Assembly: GCA_035653615.1 (NCBI GenBank)
Contig: DASRBN010000004.1
Coordinates: 1 to 64,000, forward strand
Length of the DNA stretch: 64,000 nucleotides
Direction of reading: 5' to 3'
DNA from: Ktedonobacteraceae bacterium
GTDB taxonomy: Bacteria; Chloroflexota; Ktedonobacteria; Ktedonobacterales; Ktedonobacteraceae
In this document: positions 69 through 57,100 of the stretch, in pieces
How positions within the stretch are numbered: position 1 is the first letter of the stretch
Layout: each line of letters begins with the position of its first letter
Translations under genes and position numbers: made by a program
Notes under the pieces: generated by a model
The model's database searches: none
Seen by the model: the letters and a program-made list of their open reading frames with translations, nothing else
Told to the model about the DNA's origin: nothing

Positions 69-149
69 CCGCTCGCTTGCTTGGTATGCTTCCGCGGGAG
101 GCTTGGGGGCGGCTGTCTCGTGTGAAGTGCAACTGTAGTGCAGCAACAG

Positions 150-3100
150 GTTTCAATCCCCAACGGGCATCCCAAGCCATTTAGCCAAGTGAGGACGTCC
201 GATGGCCGGATATAACCACTGGAGTTTCAATCCCCAACGGGCATCCCAAGCCATTTAGCCGCAGTACCCAGGATTGCGAGATTGTATCTTGCTGGCATCG
301 TTTCAATCCCCAACGGGCATCCCAAGCCATTTAGCCGGCGTGTCACCGCAAGCCACGAGTAGCACGAGCGCGACGTTTCAATCCCCAACGGGCATCCCAA
401 GCCATTTAGCCCGCCTACTGCTACCACAGCCCCCGCGCATCATAGCGGTTTCAATCCCCAACGGGCATCCCAAGCCATTTAGCCCACTTGCAAGGGCAAG
501 GCATCGAGTCAGACCGACAGGTTTCAATCCCCAACGGGCATCCCAAGCCATTTAGCCCTTGGCCCCGCGAGTGGTGGAACACTCCGGAGCCGTGTTTCAA
601 TCCCCAACGGGCATCCCAAGCCATTTAGCCAGCAATAGAATTTCGTGCCGGCTATCAATACCTCTGGGTTTCAATCCCCAACGGGCATCCCAAGCCATTT
701 AGCCCTCCATCAAGAGGCGCTTCACATGCGCGCCCTGCACGTTTCAATCCCCAACGGGCATCCCAAGCCATTTAGCCTTGTTCGCAGCCATGTGCTCAGC
801 GTCATAGAAGAAGGTTTCAATCCCCAACGGGCATCCCAAGCCATTTAGCCCGATTCCGGTCAATCGCGCCAACGTGAAGCTCCAGTATGTTTCAATCCCC
901 AACGGGCATCCCAAGCCATTTAGCCAGCTGGATTTGCCGGTAGAAGCCTACGAAGTCGTCTAGTTTCAATCCCCAACGGGCATCCCAAGCCATTTAGCCG
1001 ATGTCAATTTTCAATTTGGCACGACCGATGGCGAATTGTTTCAATCCCCAACGGGCATCCCAAGCCATTTAGCCATAGAAAAGAGAGTGCTGGCTCCCCT
1101 CCCCGTCTCTTGGTTTCAATCCCCAACGGGCATCCCAAGCCATTTAGCCGGAATACGAAACAGGTAGAGCTGCCTGCCGATAGCCGTTTCAATCCCCAAC
1201 GGGCATCCCAAGCCATTTAGCCTCGGCGCCCCGGCACCGCGACCATGGTACCTGTGAGTTTCAATCCCCAACGGGCATCCCAAGCCATTTAGCCTACAGC
1301 ATCACGCCGTTTAGCGCAAGTGCGCCAGGCGGTTTCAATCCCCAACGGGCATCCCAAGCCATTTAGCCCTCGTGGAGGTTGCGGTATGACCACAAAACAT
1401 GTCGTGCGTTTCAATCCCCAACGGGCATCCCAAGCCATTTAGCCTGATGAGCTTATCTCAGGTACGAAGGCACGGTATGCTGTTTCAATCCCCAACGGGC
1501 ATCCCAAGCCATTTAGCCCGTCTACCAACGGCACCCGTGTCTACAAGGCCGTAGTTAGTTTCAATCCCCAACGGGCATCCCAAGCCATTTAGCCCTTTGC
1601 CTACACTCCGCATATCACGCTGGCCTATACGTTTCAATCCCCAACGGGCATCCCAAGCCATTTAGCCGGCCGCAGGCAAACTGGGAATCTTCATCGGCCA
1701 GATGATGTTTCAATCCCCAACGGGCATCCCAAGCCATTTAGCCCGCCCGCAAACACGGTATAACGATGGACGTGGCGCTTTCGTTTCAATCCCCAACGGG
1801 CATCCCAAGCCATTTAGCCTCAGGATGCCCCGCCTTGCTGTCGAAGTACCACTGACAGTTTCAATCCCCAACGGGCATCCCAAGCCATTTAGCCGCCAGC
1901 AGGAGGAGACGCAGCGGCTCAACGAGGCAGCAGTTTCAATCCCCAACGGGCATCCCAAGCCATTTAGCCCGGGCGGCTGCTCACCCACCCCGAATCCATC
2001 CAGTCGGTTTCAATCCCCAACGGGCATCCCAAGCCATTTAGCCACTTTCTCGGCATACAACATTTGACGAACAGCCGCTGTTTCAATCCCCAACGGGCAT
2101 CCCAAGCCATTTAGCCAAAAACAAACTTGGCATGCAGAACCTGATCGAAGATGAGTTTCAATCCCCAACGGGCATCCCAAGCCATTTAGCCGATCAAAGT
2201 GGGCGATGATGTGATGCCCATTTTATCCAGTTTCAATCCCCAACGGGCATCCCAAGCCATTTAGCCACTATTTGAGAAAGCGCGGCCTGAGCGATGAGAC
2301 AATTAGTTTCAATCCCCAACGGGCATCCCAAGCCATTTAGCCTTCCTGTAGGCACTCCAGCTTCCGGTGAGTGACACAAAGTTTCAATCCCCAACGGGCA
2401 TCCCAAGCCATTTAGCCGTCTATGGGGAAAACGGCCTGGTGCAGTGGTATCAGGGTTTCAATCCCCAACGGGCATCCCAAGCCATTTAGCCCAGAACAAG
2501 AAGCAGTGCTTGAACCATACAATAAAGTTTCAATCCCCAACGGGCATCCCAAGCCATTTAGCCGGGCAGTTATGAGTCTGTCGGCCTTTATGAAAGAGGT
2601 GTTTCAATCCCCAACGGGCATCCCAAGCCATTTAGCCCCCAGTGGCAATGGCCTGTACTACACGCAGAACGTGTTTGTTTCAATCCCCAACGGGCATCCC
2701 AAGCCATTTAGCCTTCGTCCATAGTGACCAGACAGTCTTGGGCCTCTTTTGTTTCAATCCCCAACGGGCATCCCAAGCCATTTAGCCACGAACTGTATAC
2801 CGGGCAGGAGTAGCTCCTTATCAGTTTCAATCCCCAACGGGCATCCCAAGCCATTTAGCCTTTGAGCGTACCGTACTTATACGAGCTATACATATCCCGT
2901 TTCAATCCCCAACGGGCATCCCAAGCCATTTAGCCGAGAGGCATGAGTACTGAACAGCAGCAGCAGCAAGAGAGTTTCAATCCCCAACGGGCATCCCAAG
3001 CCATTTAGCCAGTTGTTGGCCGCCATGCCGGAGCCTGTTGGAATGTTGGTTTCAATCCCCAACGGGCATCCCAAGCCATTTAGCCGCTTTCCACGATGAG

Positions 3101-4870
3101 GGTCAGCCGGGTCAACAGGTGTTTCAATCCCCAACGGGCATCCCAAGCCATTTAGCCCTCTGGGGGTGGTGGAACAACGAGAAAAGGCTCACCAGTTTCA
3201 ATCCCCAACGGGCATCCCAAGCCATTTAGCCCCAACAACACGGCAATTAATACCGCTGTAGCACTTAATCGTTTCAATCCCCAACGGGCATCCCAAGCCA
3301 TTTAGCCCAGGCGTTCATGCGGATGGGAGCAGCGTAAAGCCATGCGTTTCAATCCCCAACGGGCATCCCAAGCCATTTAGCCTACTACAAGAAAGATGGC
3401 CGCGAGTTCAGTTTTGAAGCGTTTCAATCCCCAACGGGCATCCCAAGCCATTTAGCCGGGCTGGCGGATGCCCTGTACAGGTGTTGAAAATAATGCGTTT
3501 CAATCCCCAACGGGCATCCCAAGCCATTTAGCCGGTGTTGCACCCATGCAACACTCACCCGCTACGAAAGTTTCAATCCCCAACGGGCATCCCAAGCCAT
3601 TTAGCCTGACAAACAAAAGTCAAGGAGTCAAAAACATGTACGGTTTCAATCCCCAACGGGCATCCCAAGCCATTTAGCCATTGTCTCAGGTCTATCCCAG
3701 CTTGCATACTGATTTGGGTTTCAATCCCCAACGGGCATCCCAAGCCATTTAGCCGTAGTCGAATATCAGTTAACACCGTTCGACGGACAGCCGTTTCAAT
3801 CCCCAACGGGCATCCCAAGCCATTTAGCCTTGAAGCCGGGCGCTTTCATTGCGGCCTGGAAAAGCTCAGTTTCAATCCCCAACGGGCATCCCAAGCCATT
3901 TAGCCAGAGGCACCAGCCTATGGGGAACTACCCAACCAGGAAGTTTCAATCCCCAACGGGCATCCCAAGCCATTTAGCCCCGCGCTGACGACGGGCGATA
4001 GCAAGTGCCAGCGCGACGTTTCAATCCCCAACGGGCATCCCAAGCCATTTAGCCGCGGCCAGTTGGGCCTGTGTCATTCCCAACTTAGTACGGTTTCAAT
4101 CCCCAACGGGCATCCCAAGCCATTTAGCCTCTTGCGCTACCAGGGGGTGATCGACACGTGGGAGCCGTTTCAATCCCCAACGGGCATCCCAAGCCATTTA
4201 GCCGCTGAACTGCAAGCGTTCGGTGCGCCCCTGGGATGGTTTCAATCCCCAACGGGCATCCCAAGCCATTTAGCCGGTCAGAGGCGAGCAGGATAGGCTG
4301 GCGCGTCATGAGTTTCAATCCCCAACGGGCATCCCAAGCCATTTAGCCCACTATGATTATGCTGTAAGTTACTCGATCTGGCGGGAAGTTTCAATCCCCA
4401 ACGGGCATCCCAAGCCATTTAGCCGCCTATACGGGTGAGGTGCTGGCTCTGCCATCCATGCAGTTTCAATCCCCAACGGGCATCCCAAGCCATTTAGCCC
4501 TTGCTGAAGAATGCGCGGCGCGTGGCTGCAAGATACAGTTTCAATCCCCAACGGGCATCCCAAGCCATTTAGCCAAAGAGCGGCTTGCGGACAAGGATTT
4601 GACCGAGGAAGTTTCAATCCCCAACGGGCATCCCAAGCCATTTAGCCCTCGTTTACCGGCTACGTCCTGCGTCATCCTGAGCAGTTTCAATCCCCAACGG
4701 GCATCCCAAGCCATTTAGCCTGAGGTTACGTGGAACGGGAAAGCTCAGCAATGGCGCGTTTCAATCCCCAACGGGCATCCCAAGCCATTTAGCCATATCA
4801 ATATCTGGCAAAGTTTGCCCAGGATATTGCGACGTTTCAATCCCCAACGGGCATCCCAAGCCATTTAGCC
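150..4870 (-). CRISPR. CRISPR array, 64 repeats and 63 spacers
   Basis: A 37-nt unit (plus-strand sequence starts GTTTCAATCCCCAACGGG and ends AAGCCATTTAGCC) recurs 64 times from 150 to 4834 with a period of 72-76 nt, so spacers are about 35-39 nt. I located every repeat start by eye and saw no variant copy, even at the left, distal end. On the minus strand the repeat ends in GGGGATTGAAAC; an ATTGAAAC-type 3' end is the usual crRNA 5' handle of type I-B/I-D and type III systems, so transcription is called leftward. A promoter and A/T-tract leader at the right end agree. No cas gene is seen on either side; type cannot be fixed from repeats alone. Many open frames across the array are by-products of the repeat. 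Confidence 0.98.
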
Positions 4871-7059: not shown

Positions 7060-9393
7060 ATGAATAGAATAACCAATCCAGATTTCCTGGCGATAGGCAT
7101 GGGCGGCACGAATATGATGGCCATGCTGTGGACTGTTGCAGCGGGCCGTCAGGCCGTTGGCGTCGAAATGCGCGGCGATCCCTTTCTCGGCGTGCATTGG
7201 AATATTCGTGAAGACTTTTATCACCAGCTGGGCCTGATCGACCAGTTGATGCTCGAACGCTATAGCGAGGAGCAACTGCCGCGCCGTGGTGACGGACGAC
7301 TATTTCGCCTCGCGGAATGCTTCTATAGCCCGCATACGGTTGCCGGAGACATCGTTGCCGACGAAATCATTGACGGCTTCGACTCTGACCAGCATATCGT
7401 AGGCACCATTCATCACGTTGAATTCATCGACGACCGCTGGCGCGATGGCTTGCCCAACCGTGTCATTACCGTGCTGGACCCACCTGAGCCACCAGACCAT
7501 CCTGACCCGCGCAAGATTCGTACCAGCATGGTCGAGGTGCTGGATGGCCCGTCCACTTTCCAGGCCGAAGCCGCCTCCATCCAGAAGTTGCTGCGCCGCT
7601 ACCTCGAGAAGCTGGAAGAGATCGACCGCAAGACGAACAGCAAGCCCCGCGTCCAACTCTATACGCACCACCGCGTAATTCCAACCGAGGGCGAGGGGTT
7701 TATCCACCTTCCCGATGGTCGCCTGCAGGTTCGCATCGAAGCCCTGCAGGAATTCGATTTCAAGGGGCAATTCGTGCGCGTGCGCGTGCCGGGTAGCGAG
7801 CCGATTGACCTCGGCGTGCCCGAATTGTTCATGATCGCCGAAGGGTTCAGTAGTTCCGATGCGAGACGCCTGGGATTTGAGCAAAAGGATGTCAAGGTCG
7901 ATCACGGTGACGGGCGCGGGCTGGTCGTCGCGCAGGCAGACTTCCTGGCCGGTCTGATTGAGGTACTTATCGGCGGACGCCTGCGACGGCGCATCTCCTC
8001 GGCCTTTGACGAAAACGGCAGAGAATACTGGGTGCGGCAGATCGCGGTGGGCCACGAGAATGACCCGGAGGTTGGTTGGGTGCTGGTCCAGGTGCCAGAC
8101 TTCAAGACCTTCGATCCCATTGTGGCGGGTCTCGTACCCGTGGGAACCGATCCCGGCTCGCCCGAATACTTCGCCTCTTACCAGCACCTGATCTACGACT
8201 ACTACATGCGGCAGGCCGAGGAAATCCTGGATATTCCCCGCAATCAACTGATGCAGGTGCAGATGATCTACGGCCCGACATTATTCAGCCTCGTTGAAAG
8301 GGTTGGAGACGACGCGCAGGTTGCCGCCAACGGTGTAGTCGCGGGCGATTCCTTCGGCAATGGCCACTTCCTGACCAGCGGCGGGGCGATGACGGGAATG
8401 ATCGGCCACGGCTACCGCGTCCTCGAATACTGGCGGGCGCGCGATGCAGGCGCTTCACCCTCTATCGCTATTCGCAAGCTCGCGGACAGCATCAAGGAAG
8501 ATACCCTTGCCTGGCTTCACGTGAGCGCGACGGAATATAGCCAGGCCGCCCCCATCAACTTTGGCGCCGAACGTATCGAACAGATCAATAGGGCCGGCGG
8601 TACCGACTCCGGCGCACGTGCCAATGCTATTGAGTCCGCTCGCCGCCAGCGCCACGCGCTTATTCCTCTCGATCCATCCAACTGGAGACGACTATTCGTT
8701 CGCAACGGCAGAGTCCTTTCGGCGCTGCCGGAACTTGAACCGGACCACCCATTGCAGCGTCCAGAACACGAAGCCACCCTGCTCGCGGTAATGAAATCAT
8801 TTCCGGTCGCACCCAACCAGTCAGGCCCTGTGCCCGCTACGGAGCAAGAGTCAGAGACCGGCGCGGAGACCATACGCAGGCCAGAGTCCCACGTAGATCA
8901 AGAACAGGAAGTTGGTCAGGAGACGATCCGCAGACCCATGCCTGTCGCCAATCAACCCCTTGATGTTGGCGAGGAGACCATCGTCAGGCCCAAAATCAGA
9001 ATCGGCCAGGTCGCGCCGGAGAGCGCAAAAACTTACGCCTTTCTGGATATCGAGCAGCATGGGCAGGCCCCGCGGCGCATCGCCATCAAAGAAGACGCTG
9101 TACTTATCGGGCGGGCCGACCCTAAGAGCGGTATCAAACCACAGATCGACCTCGCGCCATTCGATTCCTCAACCAAAGTCTCGCGCCAGCACGCCCGTAT
9201 TCGGGTGGAGGGCAATTCTTTCTCTGTCGAAGACCTCAATAGCCGCAATAAGACGCGCCTTGGCGATACAATATTGGCTCCGATGCAGCCGGCATCACTA
9301 CAGGACGGAGACGTGATTAGCTTCGGGCCGGTCAAAGCGACGTTCCACCTGCTTGGAACGAGTGCGTTGCCCGTGCCCTGGTCGCAATCGTAG
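7060..9393 (+). CDS. Flavoprotein monooxygenase-like / FHA-domain fusion
   Basis: This 777-residue cytoplasmic protein has two parts. The first ~560 residues look like a FAD-dependent oxidoreductase: a dinucleotide-binding GMGGTN near residue 13 and, near residue 430, a second FAD motif (AGDSFGNGHFLTSGGAM). From about 665 to 765 is an FHA phosphothreonine-binding domain with GR (684-685), SRQH (708-711) and a VEDLNSRN loop. The linker carries three ETI(R/V)RP motifs whose threonines are T604, T622 and T640, exactly 18 residues apart. In known FHA switches such as GarA, an N-terminal phosphothreonine binds the protein's own FHA domain; a similar switch here is inference. The substrate is unknown. 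A P450 gene follows by 16 nt, suggesting an oxidative operon under Ser/Thr-kinase control. ATG 7060 has AGGAGG (7049-7054) upstream. Confidence 0.85.
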   Translation: MNRITNPDFLAIGMGGTNMMAMLWTVAAGRQAVGVEMRGDPFLGVHWNIREDFYHQLGLIDQLMLERYSEEQLPRRGDGRLFRLAECFYSPHTVAGDIVADEIIDGFDSDQHIVGTIHHVEFIDDRWRDGLPNRVITVLDPPEPPDHPDPRKIRTSMVEVLDGPSTFQAEAASIQKLLRRYLEKLEEIDRKTNSKPRVQLYTHHRVIPTEGEGFIHLPDGRLQVRIEALQEFDFKGQFVRVRVPGSEPIDLGVPELFMIAEGFSSSDARRLGFEQKDVKVDHGDGRGLVVAQADFLAGLIEVLIGGRLRRRISSAFDENGREYWVRQIAVGHENDPEVGWVLVQVPDFKTFDPIVAGLVPVGTDPGSPEYFASYQHLIYDYYMRQAEEILDIPRNQLMQVQMIYGPTLFSLVERVGDDAQVAANGVVAGDSFGNGHFLTSGGAMTGMIGHGYRVLEYWRARDAGASPSIAIRKLADSIKEDTLAWLHVSATEYSQAAPINFGAERIEQINRAGGTDSGARANAIESARRQRHALIPLDPSNWRRLFVRNGRVLSALPELEPDHPLQRPEHEATLLAVMKSFPVAPNQSGPVPATEQESETGAETIRRPESHVDQEQEVGQETIRRPMPVANQPLDVGEETIVRPKIRIGQVAPESAKTYAFLDIEQHGQAPRRIAIKEDAVLIGRADPKSGIKPQIDLAPFDSSTKVSRQHARIRVEGNSFSVEDLNSRNKTRLGDTILAPMQPASLQDGDVISFGPVKATFHLLGTSALPVPWSQS

Positions 9394-9409: not shown

Positions 9410-10648
9410 ATGACGACTTCGCCCGCGAACCAGCCGGGGCCATTCCCTTTTCGCTTTTTTGAAGGCCAGTTTACAGAAAATCCTTACCCTATGCTTGCCA
9501 ACATGCGGGCAATGGGAGCCATCGTGGAAATTCCTCTTCCCTATGGCGACGGTATGAAGGCCTGGATGGTGACGCGCATGGAGGAAGCAGTACAGGTACT
9601 TAAGGATAGGCGCTTCACGGTTGATCGCTCCGCGGTTTTCGGCGAACGCTATTCAAAAGGAACAGACCAGCAGTTCAATCGGGGGCCGGGCTTCTTAAAC
9701 CATTCCATGATTATGGTCGATGAGCCGGACCATCGCCGCCTGCGAGGACTGGTTTCTAAAGCGTTCACCCCGAAGTACATTGCAGGCCTGCGACCCGACA
9801 TCCAGCAGATCGCGGACGAGTTGCTCGATAAGGTTCAGGAGCAGGGCAGCATGGACCTGGTGAGTGATTTTGCCTATCCGCTGCCCATCAATGTCATTTC
9901 GGACATGCTCGGCGTCCCACGCGAAAACCGCGCGTACATCCGCGAATGGTCGCAGGCATTGGCCGGCGGCGGCAATTACAGCAGGGAGCAACGCCGCGAT
10001 CTCATGTACGCATTCTCCGACTATGTCGCGCAGCTGGTGGCCGAAAAGAGGCGGCACCCGCAGGATGACCTGATCAGCCATCTTATCACGCAAGAAGACG
10101 AAGGTGACCACCTCAGCGAGTCTGAATTGCTTTCTATGGTCGGCCTGCTCATCTTTGCCGGGCACGAGACAACTTCTAACCTGATCGGCATCGGCACACT
10201 GATGCTGCTGGATCACCCCGACCAGTTAGAAAAGTTGAAAGCAGACCCCAGCCTGGTGCCGTCAGCGGTAGAAGAGCTGTTGCGCTATAATGGGCCGGTT
10301 GCTGCGCCCATGCCACGCTTTGCCCTGGAAGATATCGAGCTGGGCGGGCAGCACTTCCACAAAGGTGATCTTGTACTCATCATGCTCGCCTCAGCGGACC
10401 GCGACGAGACGTTCTTTACGGACCCCGAAGAGCTGGATATCGCCCGCAACCTGAATCGTCACATCGCCTTCGGACAGGGCATTCATATCTGCCTGGGTGC
10501 CCCCCTGGCTCGGCTCGAAGGAGACATCGCCTTTACCACGCTGCTGCGGCGCATGCCCAACCTGCGGCTCAATGTACCTCGTGATACTATCACCTGGCGC
10601 GGCGGTTTCAACCTGCGCGGGCTTGTCAGCTTGCCGGTAGCATTTTAA
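9410..10648 (+). CDS. Cytochrome P450
   Basis: A 412-residue soluble bacterial P450. Key motifs are all present: the I-helix oxygen-activation motif AGHETT (250-255), the K-helix ExxR (E289-R292) and the heme loop FGQGIHICLG with the thiolate ligand C361. It would hydroxylate or epoxidise a small organic substrate using electrons from a ferredoxin system not encoded here. ATG 9410 is chosen over an in-frame start at 9353, which lies inside the preceding gene, because GGAAAGGA (9393-9400) precedes it. The 16-nt gap to the flavoprotein-FHA gene implies co-transcription. The substrate cannot be read from sequence. Confidence 0.95.
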   Translation: MTTSPANQPGPFPFRFFEGQFTENPYPMLANMRAMGAIVEIPLPYGDGMKAWMVTRMEEAVQVLKDRRFTVDRSAVFGERYSKGTDQQFNRGPGFLNHSMIMVDEPDHRRLRGLVSKAFTPKYIAGLRPDIQQIADELLDKVQEQGSMDLVSDFAYPLPINVISDMLGVPRENRAYIREWSQALAGGGNYSREQRRDLMYAFSDYVAQLVAEKRRHPQDDLISHLITQEDEGDHLSESELLSMVGLLIFAGHETTSNLIGIGTLMLLDHPDQLEKLKADPSLVPSAVEELLRYNGPVAAPMPRFALEDIELGGQHFHKGDLVLIMLASADRDETFFTDPEELDIARNLNRHIAFGQGIHICLGAPLARLEGDIAFTTLLRRMPNLRLNVPRDTITWRGGFNLRGLVSLPVAF

Positions 10649-47378: not shown

Positions 47379-49442
47379 TCATTGAGCTACCCATACCTGT
47401 ACCGTTTTATCCCAGGAGGCGGAAGCAATATGATTGCCGCGGGGCGACCAGGAGACGGAGCGGACGCTGCTGGTATGGCCGCGGTAGATATAGCGGTGGC
47501 CACCATTTGCCGCGTCCCAGACCTGCACGGTTTTGTCGTCTCCCGCCGAGGCAAGGCGCTTGCCATCCGGCGACCACGCCACTGTATAGACGAAATCGCT
47601 GTGACCGGTATAGACAAACAGGCGTTTGCCGTCGGCGGCATTCCAGATTTGCACCGTTTTATCGTCTCCAGCCAGGGCCAGGTGCCTGCCGTCCGGCGAC
47701 CACGCGACAGACCAGACGGAGGGAGATTGCGCCTGGTAGAGAGCAAGCAGCTTGCCGGTAGTGGCGTCCCAGATTTGTACGGTACCGTCATTGCCCGCCG
47801 AGGCGATGAGCTTGCCGTCCGGTGACCATGCCAGTGTATAGACGGGGGCCTTGTGACCGCGGTAGATGAAACTGCGCCCATCCCCCGCCGAACTCCAGAC
47901 CTGCACAGTGCTATCCCCGCCTGCCGAGGCGATGAGCTTGCCATCCGGCGACCACCTGGCGATCCAGACCCACGAGGAATGCCCGCGATAGGTGTAGAAA
48001 GGGTCGCCAAATGTAGCATCCCAGATTTGCACCGTCTTATCATAGCTGGCCGAGGCGATGCGCTCCCCATTGGGCGACCAGGCGACAGAGTACACCGAAT
48101 CCGTATGGCGCATATAGATATTAAGATGATCGCCGGTGGTGGCATCCCAGACCTGCGCTGTATCATCACCACTACCGGACGCCACACGCTGCCCATCCGG
48201 TGAAAAGGCAGCAGACCATACTAACCCGGTATGTCCCCGAAAAGTGAAGAGTAGACTGCCCGCGGTGGTTGTAACGGGATGCTGCGTGTGCTGTTCGTAC
48301 TCGAACAAGGCAAAACCGCCACCTGCCGCTGCGACAATCGCCGCTCCCACCAGGCCCAACAACACCTTACGCCGTGATATGGGTTTCTCTTTCATGCCGG
48401 CGGGTGGTTGAGCAGCTACCTGCGCTTCATCAACTAAGGGGTTTTCTGGAGACGAAGATATGGCTTGCAATAGAGAACCCATGCTGGGAGGCGTCTGGCT
48501 TGGCATAGTCAGGAGGTCAGCGGAGAGATCTTCCTGGTGCGAGAGCTGAATAGTCTCAACCGGTGATCCCTGAGCCGGCGGTAGAGCTGTATTGCTGGAA
48601 GCAATTATGGTTCCCGGCGCTTGCAGAGCGGCATGTTCGAGAGCAATGGCAAAGGCCTGGACATCCTCGAATCGATCTTGTGGGGCCTTGGCCAGGGCTT
48701 TCATTACCACCTGTTCGGTTTCCTCTGAAATGGTGGGAACTTTTTCGCGCAATGGTGGAGGAGCCGCCATGGTTTGCTTAACCGCGATTTCGGTAAACGA
48801 GCCTTGAAACGGGCGCGAACCGCTTAACCACTCGTAAACGACGATGCCAAGCGAATACTGATCGCTGTTAGGGCAAGCCTGAGCATGAATTTGCTCCGGT
48901 GCCATATAGGCGATAGTGCCGGCCATGTCCTGCATTTTGCCGTCGCTGCTGCTGTAGCGCGAACTCTGGGCGACGAGAGCGATGCCAAAATCGCTAAGTA
49001 GGATTTCGTTACGTCGTCCGATCAGCATATTCTCCGGCTTGACATCGCGATGGATGACCTTCTGCTCGTGCGCGTAATGCAATGCCGATGCGATCTGCTT
49101 GACATAACCAACGATGGTTATGAGTGGCACCGAAATGCTGCGTGGATGACGCTTACGCAGGGTGCCATTGGGTGCATAATCGACGACAAGGTAAGGAATG
49201 CCATCCTGGACATTGAATTCGAGAACGCGCACGATATTGGGATGAACGAGGCGGGCAATGGTACGTGCCTCAGCGCGAAAGTGTTCTATGTCATCATCAT
49301 CGAGACGCGTGTGCAGGACTTTAATGGCCGCGGTCGTATCGAGATAGATGTGCTCGCCAAGGTAAACTTCAGCAAAGCCTCCTTGCCCAAGCAAGCGGAC
49401 GAGACGATAGTTTCCAAGTTGTTGCCCGATACGGTCTGCCAT
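47379..49442 (-). CDS. Membrane Ser/Thr protein kinase with WD40 propeller
   Basis: A 687-residue PknB-like kinase. The kinase domain (11-270) has the glycine loop GQGGFA (20-25), K41, HRDVKPEN (131-138) and DFG (151-153). After a Pro/Ser-rich linker, one membrane span (about 355-378, after RRKV) leads to seven WD40 repeats, each ending VQVW or VQIW and starting GHxxxVxS, which form one complete propeller. The kinase would be cytoplasmic and the propeller extracytoplasmic, a sensor-like layout. A PP2C phosphatase lies 2 kb away and an FHA protein at 7-9 kb, so partners may be local; this is inference. Confidence 0.94.
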   Translation of the reverse strand: MADRIGQQLGNYRLVRLLGQGGFAEVYLGEHIYLDTTAAIKVLHTRLDDDDIEHFRAEARTIARLVHPNIVRVLEFNVQDGIPYLVVDYAPNGTLRKRHPRSISVPLITIVGYVKQIASALHYAHEQKVIHRDVKPENMLIGRRNEILLSDFGIALVAQSSRYSSSDGKMQDMAGTIAYMAPEQIHAQACPNSDQYSLGIVVYEWLSGSRPFQGSFTEIAVKQTMAAPPPLREKVPTISEETEQVVMKALAKAPQDRFEDVQAFAIALEHAALQAPGTIIASSNTALPPAQGSPVETIQLSHQEDLSADLLTMPSQTPPSMGSLLQAISSSPENPLVDEAQVAAQPPAGMKEKPISRRKVLLGLVGAAIVAAAGGGFALFEYEQHTQHPVTTTAGSLLFTFRGHTGLVWSAAFSPDGQRVASGSGDDTAQVWDATTGDHLNIYMRHTDSVYSVAWSPNGERIASASYDKTVQIWDATFGDPFYTYRGHSSWVWIARWSPDGKLIASAGGDSTVQVWSSAGDGRSFIYRGHKAPVYTLAWSPDGKLIASAGNDGTVQIWDATTGKLLALYQAQSPSVWSVAWSPDGRHLALAGDDKTVQIWNAADGKRLFVYTGHSDFVYTVAWSPDGKRLASAGDDKTVQVWDAANGGHRYIYRGHTSSVRSVSWSPRGNHIASASWDKTVQVWVAQ

Positions 49443-52666: not shown

Positions 52667-53752
52667 TCATGCTAAAAAATCATCCAATTGGCGGGAGCGA
52701 CTCAGAGGATCAAGTTTGCGTAATGATTTCGATTCTACCTGGCGCACCGCCTCATGGCTCAATCCTAGCTTTCGACCTACCTCATGCAAGGTATGCTCGC
52801 GACTACCATCCAACCCATAGCGCAATTCGATCACTTGCCGTTCTCTTGCGGTCAGGTTCGCCAGGAGATCTTGCACCTGGGCTTCGAGTGTCCTGGAAAG
52901 AACCACGCTTTCAGGCGAATAAACCGGGTCATCTTCGAGCAGGTCGCTGAGTGGAAGAAGTTCTTCTTCGCTGATCCTGCGCGGCCTATCCAGGCTAACC
53001 GTTTCCTGTGTCATCGTTAAAAGGTCAATAACCTGCTGAACGTCAAGTTCCATCTGGTTCGCCAGCTCCTCAAGCGTCGGTTCCGTCTCCAATCCTTGCT
53101 GCAAGCGCTGCCGGACGCGGGCCAGGCGTTTGACCTTTTCCATCTTGTACAGGGGCACGCGGATCATGCGGGCCTGCTCGGTCAGGGCTCGTGCTATGGC
53201 CTGGCGAATCCACCAGATAGCGTATGTACTGAACTTGTAGCCTTTCCTATAATCAAATTTTTCGACCGCGTGCATCAGCCCCAGGTTGCCCTCTTGAACG
53301 AGATCCATCATGTCCGTACCCAATCCCCTGTATCTTTTCGCGACATACATGACGAGGCGCAGGTTGGCCTCAATCAGCCGGCGCTTAGCACGTTCGCCAT
53401 CTTCAATAATTTGCTGCTGCCCTGCTTGTTTTGGCGAATGCCGCGCTGCCAGCCGCCCTCTTTCTATGCGCTGTGCGAGAGCTACCACTTCTTCAGCAGT
53501 AAGTAGTTCGACGCGTCCAATCTCATCACTGTACAACCTGGCACAATCATCAAAACACACCTCAGTTGAAGCAAAGCCAGCGCTCGTCTCTGCTAGCTTG
53601 CCTGGCGGAATCTGCTCCACCTCCGGCAAATCAGTCGTAACCTGGGCCTGAGATGCTTCGCTGCGCTCAGCATGACATACCGCCGGTATGTCATGCTGAG
53701 CGCAGCGAAGCATCTTAACCTCTTTCTCTAGCAAGGTTGTTTTGTTACGCAC
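52667..53752 (-). CDS. Sigma-70 family primary-type sigma factor
   Basis: A 361-residue RpoD/SigA-like sigma factor. Region 1.2 begins near residue 68 (DDCARLYSDEIGRVELLTAE), region 2 contains NLRLVMYVAKRYRGLGT and GYKFSTYAIWWIRQAI, region 3 follows, and region 4.2 is the HTH HEVGRKLGLSHEAVRQVE. The start is GTG 53752: GGAGG lies 8 nt upstream and no other start precedes region 1.2 convincingly. This puts a family-2 palindrome (53651-53715) inside the frame, encoding MLRCAQHDIPAVCHAERSEA. Region 4.2 differs from the usual RERIRQIE. It may be an alternative group-2 factor. Confidence 0.92.
   Translation of the reverse strand: MRNKTTLLEKEVKMLRCAQHDIPAVCHAERSEASQAQVTTDLPEVEQIPPGKLAETSAGFASTEVCFDDCARLYSDEIGRVELLTAEEVVALAQRIERGRLAARHSPKQAGQQQIIEDGERAKRRLIEANLRLVMYVAKRYRGLGTDMMDLVQEGNLGLMHAVEKFDYRKGYKFSTYAIWWIRQAIARALTEQARMIRVPLYKMEKVKRLARVRQRLQQGLETEPTLEELANQMELDVQQVIDLLTMTQETVSLDRPRRISEEELLPLSDLLEDDPVYSPESVVLSRTLEAQVQDLLANLTARERQVIELRYGLDGSREHTLHEVGRKLGLSHEAVRQVESKSLRKLDPLSRSRQLDDFLA
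53651..53715. repeat. Perfect palindrome, family 2, inside the sigma-factor frame
   Basis: The 31-nt arms (53651-53681 and 53685-53715) are exact complements around a 3-nt loop. It carries the variant core GATGCTTCGCTGCGCTCAGC, and its whole length is an open frame for the sigma-factor N-terminus. Confidence 0.9.
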
Positions 53753-54106
53753 GGTAGCATCCCTCCAGTAATATCTCGTTTGTAGGAAAAGTATATACTG
53801 CTGACATTCGCCCTATCTCCCAGGATGCTCCCAATAAAGAGGAAGAGAGAAAGCAGGGGGAACAAGTGCGGATTATCCATCGTTTCTCACCATGTGCTGA
53901 AAGTCTTGCACGTGTCTTATACCGGTCTTATGATTTTTGGCTGAATTAAACAGGTGTACCCGTTTTTACTTATGTTGACATGTTTTGATATAATGGATGA
54001 GTCCTGACCTGGATGCGTAGGGGCATACCCTTGTGGTTGCCCTCCACATGACGGCACACGTTCCTCCAGTATGTGTTCGTAGTTGGTCCATGAAGGATAT
54101 GGTGAG
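53753..54106. other. Divergent region before the first STAND gene
   Basis: No gene is supported here. It contains a family-3 half element at 54017-54045 (GTAGGGGCATACCCTTGTGG) and a TTGACA-N8-TATAAT box listed separately. The sigma-factor promoter should lie near its left edge (GTATATACTG around 53791 on the complementary strand). Confidence 0.5.
53975..53994 (+). promoter_or_regulatory. TTGACA-N8-TATAAT box upstream of STAND gene A
   Basis: TTGACA (53975-53980) and TATAAT (53989-53994) are only 8 nt apart, too close for a classic -35/-10 pair. The same pair with a 7-nt gap precedes the paralogue at 59.04 kb. TATAAT is a likely -10; the TTGACA may be a shared operator. Confidence 0.45.
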
Positions 54107-57100
54107 ATGAATAGCAAGATCACATACCACCAGCAGGTCAGCTACTGCGGAAAACCGCGCTGCCGCAGGTGCCGTGAAGGAATAGGACATGGTCCTTACT
54201 GGTATGCCTATCAAACCGTCAATGGGCGAACGGTACGTACATATGTCGGCAAAGAACCCCCGGCTGAAATGCTATCCACACTCGACGAAGCCACAAATTC
54301 CAACCGCGGAGCGCAGGCCTCAGGACAGGGACAGGCCGCCGTCTCTATGGGTGCTGAACAACGCGGTAGCCTGGTACGTCTTTATGTCCTGGGTCAATTT
54401 CGTCTTGAGCATCGCAATGAGCAATACTGGCAAACCGTCAAGGATGCCGCGCTGCAACACCAACGCGTCCGTTCCTTGTTGACCTGCCTCATCAGCAATC
54501 CCGGACGCAAACTTGGGCGCGAGCAGGTGATGGATATGTTATGGCCAGACGCCGATTTCGATACTGCGTCCCATCGCCTCGACCGCGCCGTGCATAGCCT
54601 GCGCCAGCTTCTCGATCCGGGACGCAGCCGCCCGGCCATATCGAGCTTATTACTCACTGAACACCAAACTATTCAACTTGCCGGCCAGGTCCAATTGTGG
54701 ATTGATGCCGACGCTTTTGATGCCCTCGTTGCCCAGGCGCGTGCCTCAAATGATCCTGGCCAAGCCGAGCAATTGCTTGAAGAAGCACTGTTGCTCTACT
54801 GTGGAGATTTCTTACCCGACGAACGCAGTACTGACTGGATTCAATCGCGTCGCGAAGGTTTGCGGCGCAGTTGGGTCGGACTCATGCTCGAACTGGCCGA
54901 TCTACGTATCGCCCGCGAAGACCTCTCCAACGCCATCGACCTCTTAGACCGGCTACTCTCCGTCGATCCCACCAACGAGGCCGCGGTGCAACGCCTCATC
55001 GTCCTGCTTGCCCAGGCAGGAAGGCGCGGGGAAGCTATACGAGCCTACCAGCATTTCGCCGACGTGCTAAAAGAAGCATTCAACATCGCCCCGTTGCAAG
55101 AAACACGCCTCCTTTTCGACATGGTGCAGCGGGGAGAACATCCCGTAGACCGCCTGCACGCCCATACCAACGAGCAGCCATATCAAAAAGGGGCGAGCGC
55201 CGGCGATGAGAGACGTTCTTCAGATCAACAAAGCGATCTCGAAGAACAAAGCTACATGCACATTGGCCGCAGCCACCAGAGTCCCCTGGTTGGACGCGAG
55301 CAGGAATTGCAAACGCTGCGCCGGTTATTACGTATCACCGGCCAATCAACACGTATCAAGCTGGCGGGACAAAAGAAAACGGGCGGCGGAGCTCCTCTCT
55401 CGCTCGAAACACAAAAATTTGTGCAGTGTGTCTTACTCATGGGGGATGTAGGTATCGGCAAGACACGGTTAGCGGAAGAGACTGCGCGTGAGGCCAGGCG
55501 GCGCGGATGGTCTATCGCCTGGAGCCGGGCCTACGCCCAGGAAAGTAATGTCCCCTATCATTTGTGGACTGAAGCGCTGCGCAAAGCTATGGCCCATGGC
55601 ATCTGGCAACGGCATGAGATTACCAGGCGCCCGCTGATCTACCAATCGCTCGCCACACTGCTACCCGAACTACACGACCTTTTACCAGAAGCAGACCCTG
55701 TCACTATAATGCCGGTTGAGCAGGAACAAATTCGTCTGTGGGATGCCATGCGCTCCCTGCTCACCCTCGTCAGTGAAAGTATGCCTCTGCTGATTGTATT
55801 GGATGACCTGCAATGGGCCGACAGCAGCAGCTGCGAACTACTCAGCTACATCGTGCGACAACTGCGCGGCTATCCCATCTTCATCATAGGCACCTGCCGT
55901 GATAGAGAGCTTCCGGCAGATCATCCTTTGCGTTCCGTACTGATCGACCTGCAGCGCGAGCAGGCCATCGAGACTCTTTCTCTCCAGCCGCTCACAAATG
56001 AGCAAATCCGCACGCTCTTAGCATTTTTGCCAGAACCACTGGCGCAAGATATTTCGGCCCGCGCCGCAGGCAACCCTTTCTTTGCTGAGGAACTCGCACG
56101 CAGCGTCAAAATGTATCTCTCTTCATCTCTACTAGGCAGGGCGGGTGATGCAGGGAACCAGGCGCCCGCCTCAGATGCGCTATCTGAATTGCCCGGCACC
56201 ATCTCCGCCGTACTCGACCTGCGCATGGGTCGCATTAGTGAGGCCTGCCAGCGCCTGCTGGCGAGGGCGGCAGTATTAGGCGGCTCCTTCGAGTTTCACC
56301 ACATTCTCGCAATGGAGCTCAACGGCCCGGATGCAGACGAAGATACACTCCTCGACCTGTTAGAAGAAGCCTTGCAAGCAGGAATGCTGGTAGAAGAGGG
56401 CACAGGCACACACATCACCTATCATTTCTGGCATCCTATCCTGGTAAGTCACCTGTACGAAGGACTCTCGGCCAGCAGACGCCTCAGGCTACATCAAAGG
56501 GCCGCCGCGGTGTTACAGCAGCGGTATGCCGGGCGCGAAGAAGAGGGTGCGGCCAGCATCGTCTATCACCTCGTCAACGGTGGAGCCGAATCATCCAGCA
56601 TTGCCCACTACGCGCAGCTCGCTGGTGACCATGCCTTTGCCCTTTCAGCATATCCTGAAGCGGAACGCCATTACAAGCTTGCTATTGAGCATATGGGAAC
56701 AGGAACGCAGAATGCCGGCGCCAGCGAAATGCCCCAAATGGCCTACCTTTTTGAGCGACTTGGTGAGTGTAAAAGGTTTCGCGGAGACTTTACAGAGGCA
56801 CGTGCTTTCTATGCACAGGCGCTGGCAGTTCGCGAGCAACAGTCTTCAACTCTCCCTGCCGTCTCCGCAAGCGACGCTCAGTATGAGGCCCAGCTTCAGG
56901 CGCAGCTATGGTGCGAAATCGGCTGGACGTGGTACAACGAAGGCAACAATGCACAGGCTCTCCAATGCTACCAAAACGCGGAGCGCCTGCTGCGACAGGC
57001 AGAAGTGATGACTGGAGCTGTCTGGGCCAATCTTCGCCGCCAGCAGAGCTATGTAAAATGGCAGGAGGGCAACTACGATCAAGCGCGTCTGATGGCTCAA

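What the first reader, a model, noticed from the sequence alone, without database searches (positions are those of the whole stretch)
7060..9393. Flavoenzyme fused to an FHA domain through a triplicated ETI(R/V)RP phospho-switch-like linker
A FAD monooxygenase-like domain joined to a phosphothreonine-reading FHA domain is an unusual architecture. The linker holds three ETI motifs with threonines at 604, 622 and 640, an exact 18-residue (54-bp) period. In GarA-type proteins an N-terminal ETT threonine, once phosphorylated, docks onto the protein's own FHA domain and switches activity. Here one to three sites might grade such a switch and so couple Ser/Thr-kinase signals to a redox enzyme. The next gene is a P450, so a kinase-gated oxidation pathway is possible.
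Basis: partly seen in the sequence, partly recalled or inferred. Interest (0 to 1): 0.75.

Follow-up and report, generated by a model that had tools for sequence, protein, structure and literature searches.

The report
Flavoenzyme with phosphothreonine-reading tail
A soil bacterium (Ktedonobacterales) has joined an oxygen-using flavin enzyme to a domain that reads phosphorylated threonine, through a floppy tail carrying two to four copies of a conserved threonine motif; this suggests, but does not prove, that protein kinases switch, tether or cluster the enzyme.

Summary
One 777-aa ORF (7060-9393, +) holds a p-hydroxybenzoate-hydroxylase-fold FAD domain (residues ~3-517), a disordered linker with threonines 604, 622 and 640 spaced exactly 18 residues, and an FHA domain (682-756, Pfam E 2.5e-14) that keeps every phosphothreonine-pocket residue. 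Ten such genes occur in nine of 47 Ktedonobacterales genomes; their enzyme domains form one clade. All ten carry two to four linker motifs. The conserved core is not "ETI" but G/A-E-x-T-I/L-I/L-R/K: 23 of 25 units have Thr, and the unit nearest the FHA always does. The core is under purifying selection (pN/pS 0.26-0.38); the spacers are nearly free (0.7-0.9). All 21 actinomycete relatives examined (41-71% identical) lack both FHA and motifs, so the two came together. The FHA is nearest to that of a Ktedonobacteraceae pseudokinase-FHA protein. The adjacent P450 is not conserved next to relatives. Phosphorylation, self-binding and an effect on catalysis are inferred. The motif has Arg/Lys, not a hydrophobic residue, at +3, unlike the known self-binding FHA tails, so a GarA-type cis switch is plausible, not established. 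New variant of a known kind (FHA self-recognition), on an enzyme class where I found no report of it.

The parts
7060..9393 (+). Whole gene: flavoenzyme-linker-FHA protein, 777 aa plus stop
7066..8610 (+). PHBH-fold FAD domain (residues ~3-517); motifs GMGGTN at 13, AEGFSSSDA at 260 (DG-like, Asp replaced), GDSFGNGHFLTSGG at 429 (GD)
   Evidence: AF2 model and VIA/Foldseek matches; motif columns
8767..9027 (+). Linker (residues 570-656); a short helix at 568-579, disordered from about 580
   Evidence: pLDDT below 50 over 580-656 and again in a model of linker plus FHA alone
8842..8895 (+). Linker unit 1, EQESETGAETIRRPESHV, Thr604 (codon 8869-8871)
8896..8949 (+). Linker unit 2, DQEQEVGQETIRRPMPVA, Thr622 (codon 8923-8925); invariant Thr column in the ortholog alignment
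8950..9003 (+). Linker unit 3, NQPLDVGEETIVRPKIRI, Thr640 (codon 8977-8979); Gly, Glu and Thr invariant in all orthologs
9037..9351 (+). FHA domain (residues 660-764; Pfam match 682-756); pocket residues G684 R685 S708 R709 H711 N730 T732
9410..10648 (+). Neighbour: cytochrome P450, start 16 bp after the stop codon; probably co-transcribed here, but linkage not conserved in relatives

Best explanation
The protein is a FAD enzyme of the p-hydroxybenzoate-hydroxylase fold that gained, once in the Ktedonobacterales, a regulatory C-terminal module: a disordered linker with two to four threonine motifs followed by an FHA domain. Shown by sequence: the module's parts, their single origin, their co-occurrence, the invariant pThr pocket and purifying selection on the motif core. 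Inferred: one or more of the host's many Ser/Thr kinases phosphorylate the motif threonines; the protein's own FHA domain binds a phosphorylated motif, most likely the unit nearest to it, in cis; this moves the FHA and linker relative to the flavin domain or blocks the FHA from outside partners, so changing activity or location. Extra units raise the chance that one is phosphorylated and bound.
For: FHA found with all pocket residues invariant in ten copies. Linker disordered in two models. 23 of 25 units have Thr (one Ser, one Ala); the unit nearest the FHA is Thr in all. Core pN/pS 0.38 within proteins and 0.26 between orthologs, against 0.89 and 0.79 in spacers. Motifs in 10 of 10 FHA-bearing copies and 0 of 21 FHA-less relatives. 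The motif array is found nowhere else in 29 family genomes at E below 0.01, as expected of a ligand dedicated to this protein. The acidic N-terminal side resembles the M. tuberculosis PknA target logo, enriched for acidic residues at -1 and -3 to -6 and basic at +4 (PMC7164672). Glu at -2 and a hydrophobic +2 are shared with the self-binding tails of DgcB, OdhI and GarA (PMC6733907). Kinases abound: 92 Pkinase matches. Best sequence match of the FHA in the PDB is DgcB (6hc0/6hc1), a self-binding FHA on an enzyme.
Against: No phosphorylation data. The +3 residue is Arg/Lys where known self-binding tails are hydrophobic. AF2 does not dock the unphosphorylated motif, which is uninformative for pThr. 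Motif core could be conserved for kinase docking or another partner. One unit has Ala and one Ser instead of Thr, so not every unit is needed.
Confidence: 0.42

Rival explanations
1. Trans assembly: phosphorylated motifs bind FHA domains of other copies, so several sites per chain cross-link the enzyme into clusters, as reported for the FHA/linker module of the transporter Rv1747.
For: Two to four sites per single FHA is what cross-linking needs and more than a simple cis lock needs. Precedent: phosphorylation-enhanced condensation of Rv1747 1-310, two FHA domains and a disordered linker (review PMC9312465).
Against: Some copies have only two motifs. Nothing on oligomeric state is known. The nearest unit lies 20 residues from the first FHA strand, which also permits cis binding.
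Confidence: 0.22
2. Recruitment: the FHA binds a phosphorylated partner (for example a kinase, or the pseudokinase-FHA relative), and the linker motifs are targets of that kinase or ligands for another FHA protein of the cell.
For: The FHA is nearest to that of a pseudokinase-FHA protein widespread in the family (tree, psk group split 100/99). The host has 37 FHA matches and 92 kinase matches, so trans partners are plentiful. Most bacterial FHA domains act in trans.
Against: The motif array occurs only in proteins that carry this FHA, which favours a ligand in the same protein.
Confidence: 0.22
3. Non-phospho linker: the repeats are a spacer or a short binding strand conserved for a reason unrelated to phosphorylation.
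For: The core hydrophobic residues (I/L at +1 and +2) and Arg/Lys are as conserved as Thr. Ala and Ser occur at the Thr position in one unit each.
Against: Thr is invariant in the two FHA-proximal unit columns; the motifs are tied to an FHA with an intact pThr pocket.
Confidence: 0.12

Closest known systems
DgcB of Bdellovibrio (FHA-GGDEF enzyme activated by its own phosphorylated tail; PMC6733907)
   Same: An FHA domain on an enzyme, preceded by a disordered stretch with a conserved Thr that has Glu at -2 and a hydrophobic residue at +2; its FHA is the best PDB sequence match.
   Different: Different enzyme, N-terminal FHA, one site rather than two to four, Val at +3 rather than Arg/Lys; self-binding was shown there and not here.
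GarA / OdhI
   Same: FHA domain with a Thr motif on its N-terminal side.
   Different: Small free-standing FHA proteins that inhibit other enzymes; ETT(S) motif; NCBIfam OdhI match only 23 bits against a cut-off of 200.
Rv1747 FHA-linker-FHA module (PMC9312465)
   Same: Disordered linker beside FHA domains in one polypeptide, phosphorylated by host kinases.
   Different: Two FHA domains on an ABC transporter; no regular 18-residue motif array is described in what I read.
Group A (PHBH-type) flavoprotein monooxygenases such as UbiH, PnpA, PqsL and PHBH
   Same: Fold (VIA Z about 24 over ~350 residues), GD motif (GDSFGNG), Rossmann GxGGxN.
   Different: No Pfam match; Asp of the DG motif is Gln/Glu in all 29 rows; the C-terminal linker and FHA are absent from them.
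Actinomycete flavoenzymes A and B (L068-L081)
   Same: Same enzyme family, 41-71% identity.
   Different: No FHA and no motifs; often in tandem, with copy B fused behind an MFS transporter.

Membership tests
FHA domain (PF00498) | Profile match above the curated cut-off | tested here: met
   53.9 bits against 20.7
FHA domain (PF00498) | Conserved pocket residues Gly, Arg, Ser, His, Asn | tested here: met
   G684 R685 S708 H711 N730, invariant in ten copies; residue list from PMC5549992
FHA domain (PF00498) | Binds phosphothreonine peptides | not testable with these tools
   Needs a binding assay
Group A flavoprotein monooxygenase | PHBH-type fold | tested here: met
   VIA Z about 24, rmsd 3.1-4.1 over ~350 residues, model range 3-517
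Group A flavoprotein monooxygenase | GD motif (second FAD-binding motif) | tested here: met
   G429 D430 invariant in 29 rows
Group A flavoprotein monooxygenase | DG motif | tested here: not met
   A-Q/E-G in all 29 rows, Asp never present; motif role from PMC6043778. I therefore say PHBH-fold FAD enzyme, not member
Group A flavoprotein monooxygenase | NAD(P)H-dependent hydroxylation through one bound FAD | not testable with these tools
   Needs enzymology
GarA/OdhI | Small free-standing protein with N-terminal ETT motif and FHA | tested here: not met
   777-aa enzyme, C-terminal FHA, GE-x-T motif; OdhI model 23 bits against 200
Self-binding FHA proteins (works like) | Conserved Thr on the N-terminal side of the FHA in a disordered stretch | tested here: met
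Self-binding FHA proteins (works like) | Hydrophobic residue at +3 of the tail motif | tested here: not met
   Arg/Lys (rarely Met or Ala) at +3; rule from PMC6733907
Self-binding FHA proteins (works like) | Phosphorylated tail docks on the protein's own FHA | not testable with these tools
   Phosphorylated residues cannot be modelled here

The most novel reading that the evidence does not exclude
A kinase-graded flavoenzyme: a tunable array of two to four phosphothreonine sites feeding one FHA domain in the same chain, with site number changing between species by unit duplication, so that kinase signalling sets the activity or clustering of an oxidative enzyme.
Probability: 0.3. Interest if true: 0.7.

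Novelty: new variant of a known kind. Interest (0 to 1): 0.52.

Why it matters
FHA self-recognition is known on few enzymes. Here a whole regulatory module was added once to an enzyme whose close relatives (up to 71% identical) lack it, which gives a natural before-and-after pair. The number of candidate phosphosites varies from two to four between species, so it can be asked directly how many sites a phospho-switch needs. If true, it would tie the large Ser/Thr kinase sets of Ktedonobacteria to an oxidative, probably specialised, metabolic step.

Tried and rejected
Linkage to the P450 as part of the mechanism: the P450 follows by 16 bp here, but no homologue lies within about 6 kb of any of 21 relatives, and relatives have unrelated neighbours such as a molybdopterin enzyme, RNA polymerase beta, a Na/H exchanger and a kinase with beta-helix. 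Motif as a general Ktedonobacteria linker repeat: a search of 29 family genomes found it below E 0.01 only in this protein family. Flavin family by sequence: no Pfam, NCBIfam, PHROGs or PADLOC flavin match and no PDB sequence match of the family profile; only the fold search was informative. The catalysed reaction could not be inferred: actinomycete neighbours (PLP decarboxylase, TauD-like dioxygenase, DDAH-like, aminotransferases, radical SAM) hint at amino-acid-derived metabolites but differ between loci. AF2 of linker plus FHA left the motifs undocked, which says nothing either way. The main Rv1747 paper was not held. Direction of FHA transfer between the pseudokinase and the flavoenzyme: the tree separates the two but cannot be rooted.

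Full report
What was checked. The ORF at 7060-9393 (+) is open and 777 aa long. The three threonines are at 604, 622 and 640. The 18-residue periodicity is far beyond chance (0 of 20,000 shuffles).

Domains. Pfam finds the FHA at 682-756. Nothing in Pfam, NCBIfam, PHROGs or PADLOC covers residues 1-570. An AF2 model built on 29 relatives (mean pLDDT 76.6) matches PHBH-fold FAD monooxygenases at VIA Z about 24 (rmsd 3.1-4.1, about 350 residues, model range 3-517; Foldseek E about 1e-13). A shared fold does not give the reaction. Two of the three classic flavin motifs are present in recognisable form (GxGGxN at residue 13, GD at 429); the DG motif reads A-Q/E-G in all 29 sequences, so I do not file it as a standard group A hydroxylase. 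Residues 580-656 are disordered in the full model and mostly so in a model of linker plus FHA alone.

Relatives. A survey of 47 Ktedonobacterales genomes found the enzyme in nine, ten copies in all, one of them frameshifted. All ten have linker motifs and an FHA; one MAG copy is split over two contigs and its second half carries three motifs and the FHA. In the actinomycetes the enzyme is rare (2 of 394 genomes sampled), 41-71% identical, and without FHA or motifs in all 21 proteins examined. A maximum-likelihood tree of the enzyme domain puts the eight ktedonobacterial rows used in one clade (100/99) inside a tree of mostly actinomycete proteins (L080 was mislabelled as actinomycete in the group table of that call, but its place in the tree is clear). 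The simplest reading is one gain of the module; a gain followed by loss elsewhere cannot be excluded because the tree is unrooted.

The motif. Across nine distinct proteins there are 25 units; 23 have Thr, one Ser, one Ala. The unit nearest the FHA has Thr in all. In the alignment of ten linker-FHA regions, Thr622 and Thr640 and also G637 and E638 are invariant. Core codons -4 to +4 have pN/pS of 0.38 between units of one protein and 0.26 between orthologs; spacer codons have 0.89 and 0.79. These are crude Nei-Gojobori proportions near saturation at silent sites and pairs are not independent, so they rank core against spacer rather than give exact rates. The unit length is mostly 18 but 20 in one relative, so the fixed period may simply record tandem duplication of a 54-bp unit, now too diverged at DNA level for a repeat finder.

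Origin of the FHA. The nearest FHA domains lie in a kinase-like-FHA protein found in many Ktedonobacteraceae, including this genome. By sequence it lacks the beta-3 lysine and the asparagine of the catalytic loop, so it is probably a pseudokinase. The flavoenzyme and pseudokinase FHA domains are neighbours in the tree and the pseudokinase group is one side of a branch with 100/99 support. A domain copy from one gene to the other is likely; the direction is not resolved.

Mechanism. Inferred from FHA biology: kinase phosphorylates the linker threonines; the FHA binds one. Cis binding, trans clustering and recruitment of other partners remain open. In favour of self-recognition is the strict co-occurrence of motif and FHA and the absence of the motif elsewhere in the family. 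Against a plain GarA/DgcB copy is the Arg/Lys at +3, where the known self-binding tails have a hydrophobic residue (PMC6733907). The acidic residues before the Thr fit a mycobacterial kinase logo (PMC7164672), but that logo is from another phylum and its +3 preference is hydrophobic as well.

Context. The P450 gene starts 16 bp downstream and is probably co-transcribed here, but that linkage is not conserved. The host genome has 37 FHA matches and 92 kinase matches, so kinases and competing FHA proteins are plentiful.

Literature. Searches of the open library for FHA with monooxygenase, FAD, oxidoreductase or Ktedonobacter found no report of this architecture; the library lacks most subscription papers, so this is a limited test.

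Verdict. Real, conserved and functionally constrained; the phospho-switch reading is reasonable but untested. New variant of a known kind.

Noticed in passing
window 149-4870: CRISPR-like array: a 37-bp repeat (GTTTCAATCCCCAACGGGCATCCCAAGCCATTTAGCC) every 73-76 bp over about 4.7 kb.
   Followed up: no
L027 (G000:C7, about 53288-54720) and L041-L056: Pseudokinase-FHA protein widespread in Ktedonobacteraceae; no beta-3 Lys or catalytic-loop Asn; its linker holds a recurrent T-x-E-M/I motif between kinase-like and FHA domains.
   Followed up: partly
L073, L075, L076, L081 and others, about 7.8-11.3 kb: Actinomycete relatives come in tandem: flavoenzyme A, then an ORF with an MFS transporter fused to flavoenzyme B.
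   Followed up: partly
L040:1219-4398: In another family of the phylum (G161) the same flavoenzyme is followed in one ORF by an ATP-grasp-like region (weak Pfam matches).
   Followed up: no
L065 / L093 (Ktedonobacter sp. SOSP1-85): A second flavoenzyme-FHA copy is frameshifted near residue 90 but keeps linker motifs and FHA; recent pseudogene or sequencing error.
   Followed up: no
L068, L069, L073, L078, L079, L080: A Na/H-exchanger family gene lies near the flavoenzyme in six loci, one of them ktedonobacterial.
   Followed up: no
window 47379-49442 (-): Ser/Thr kinase domain followed by WD40 repeats, in the same window.
   Followed up: no
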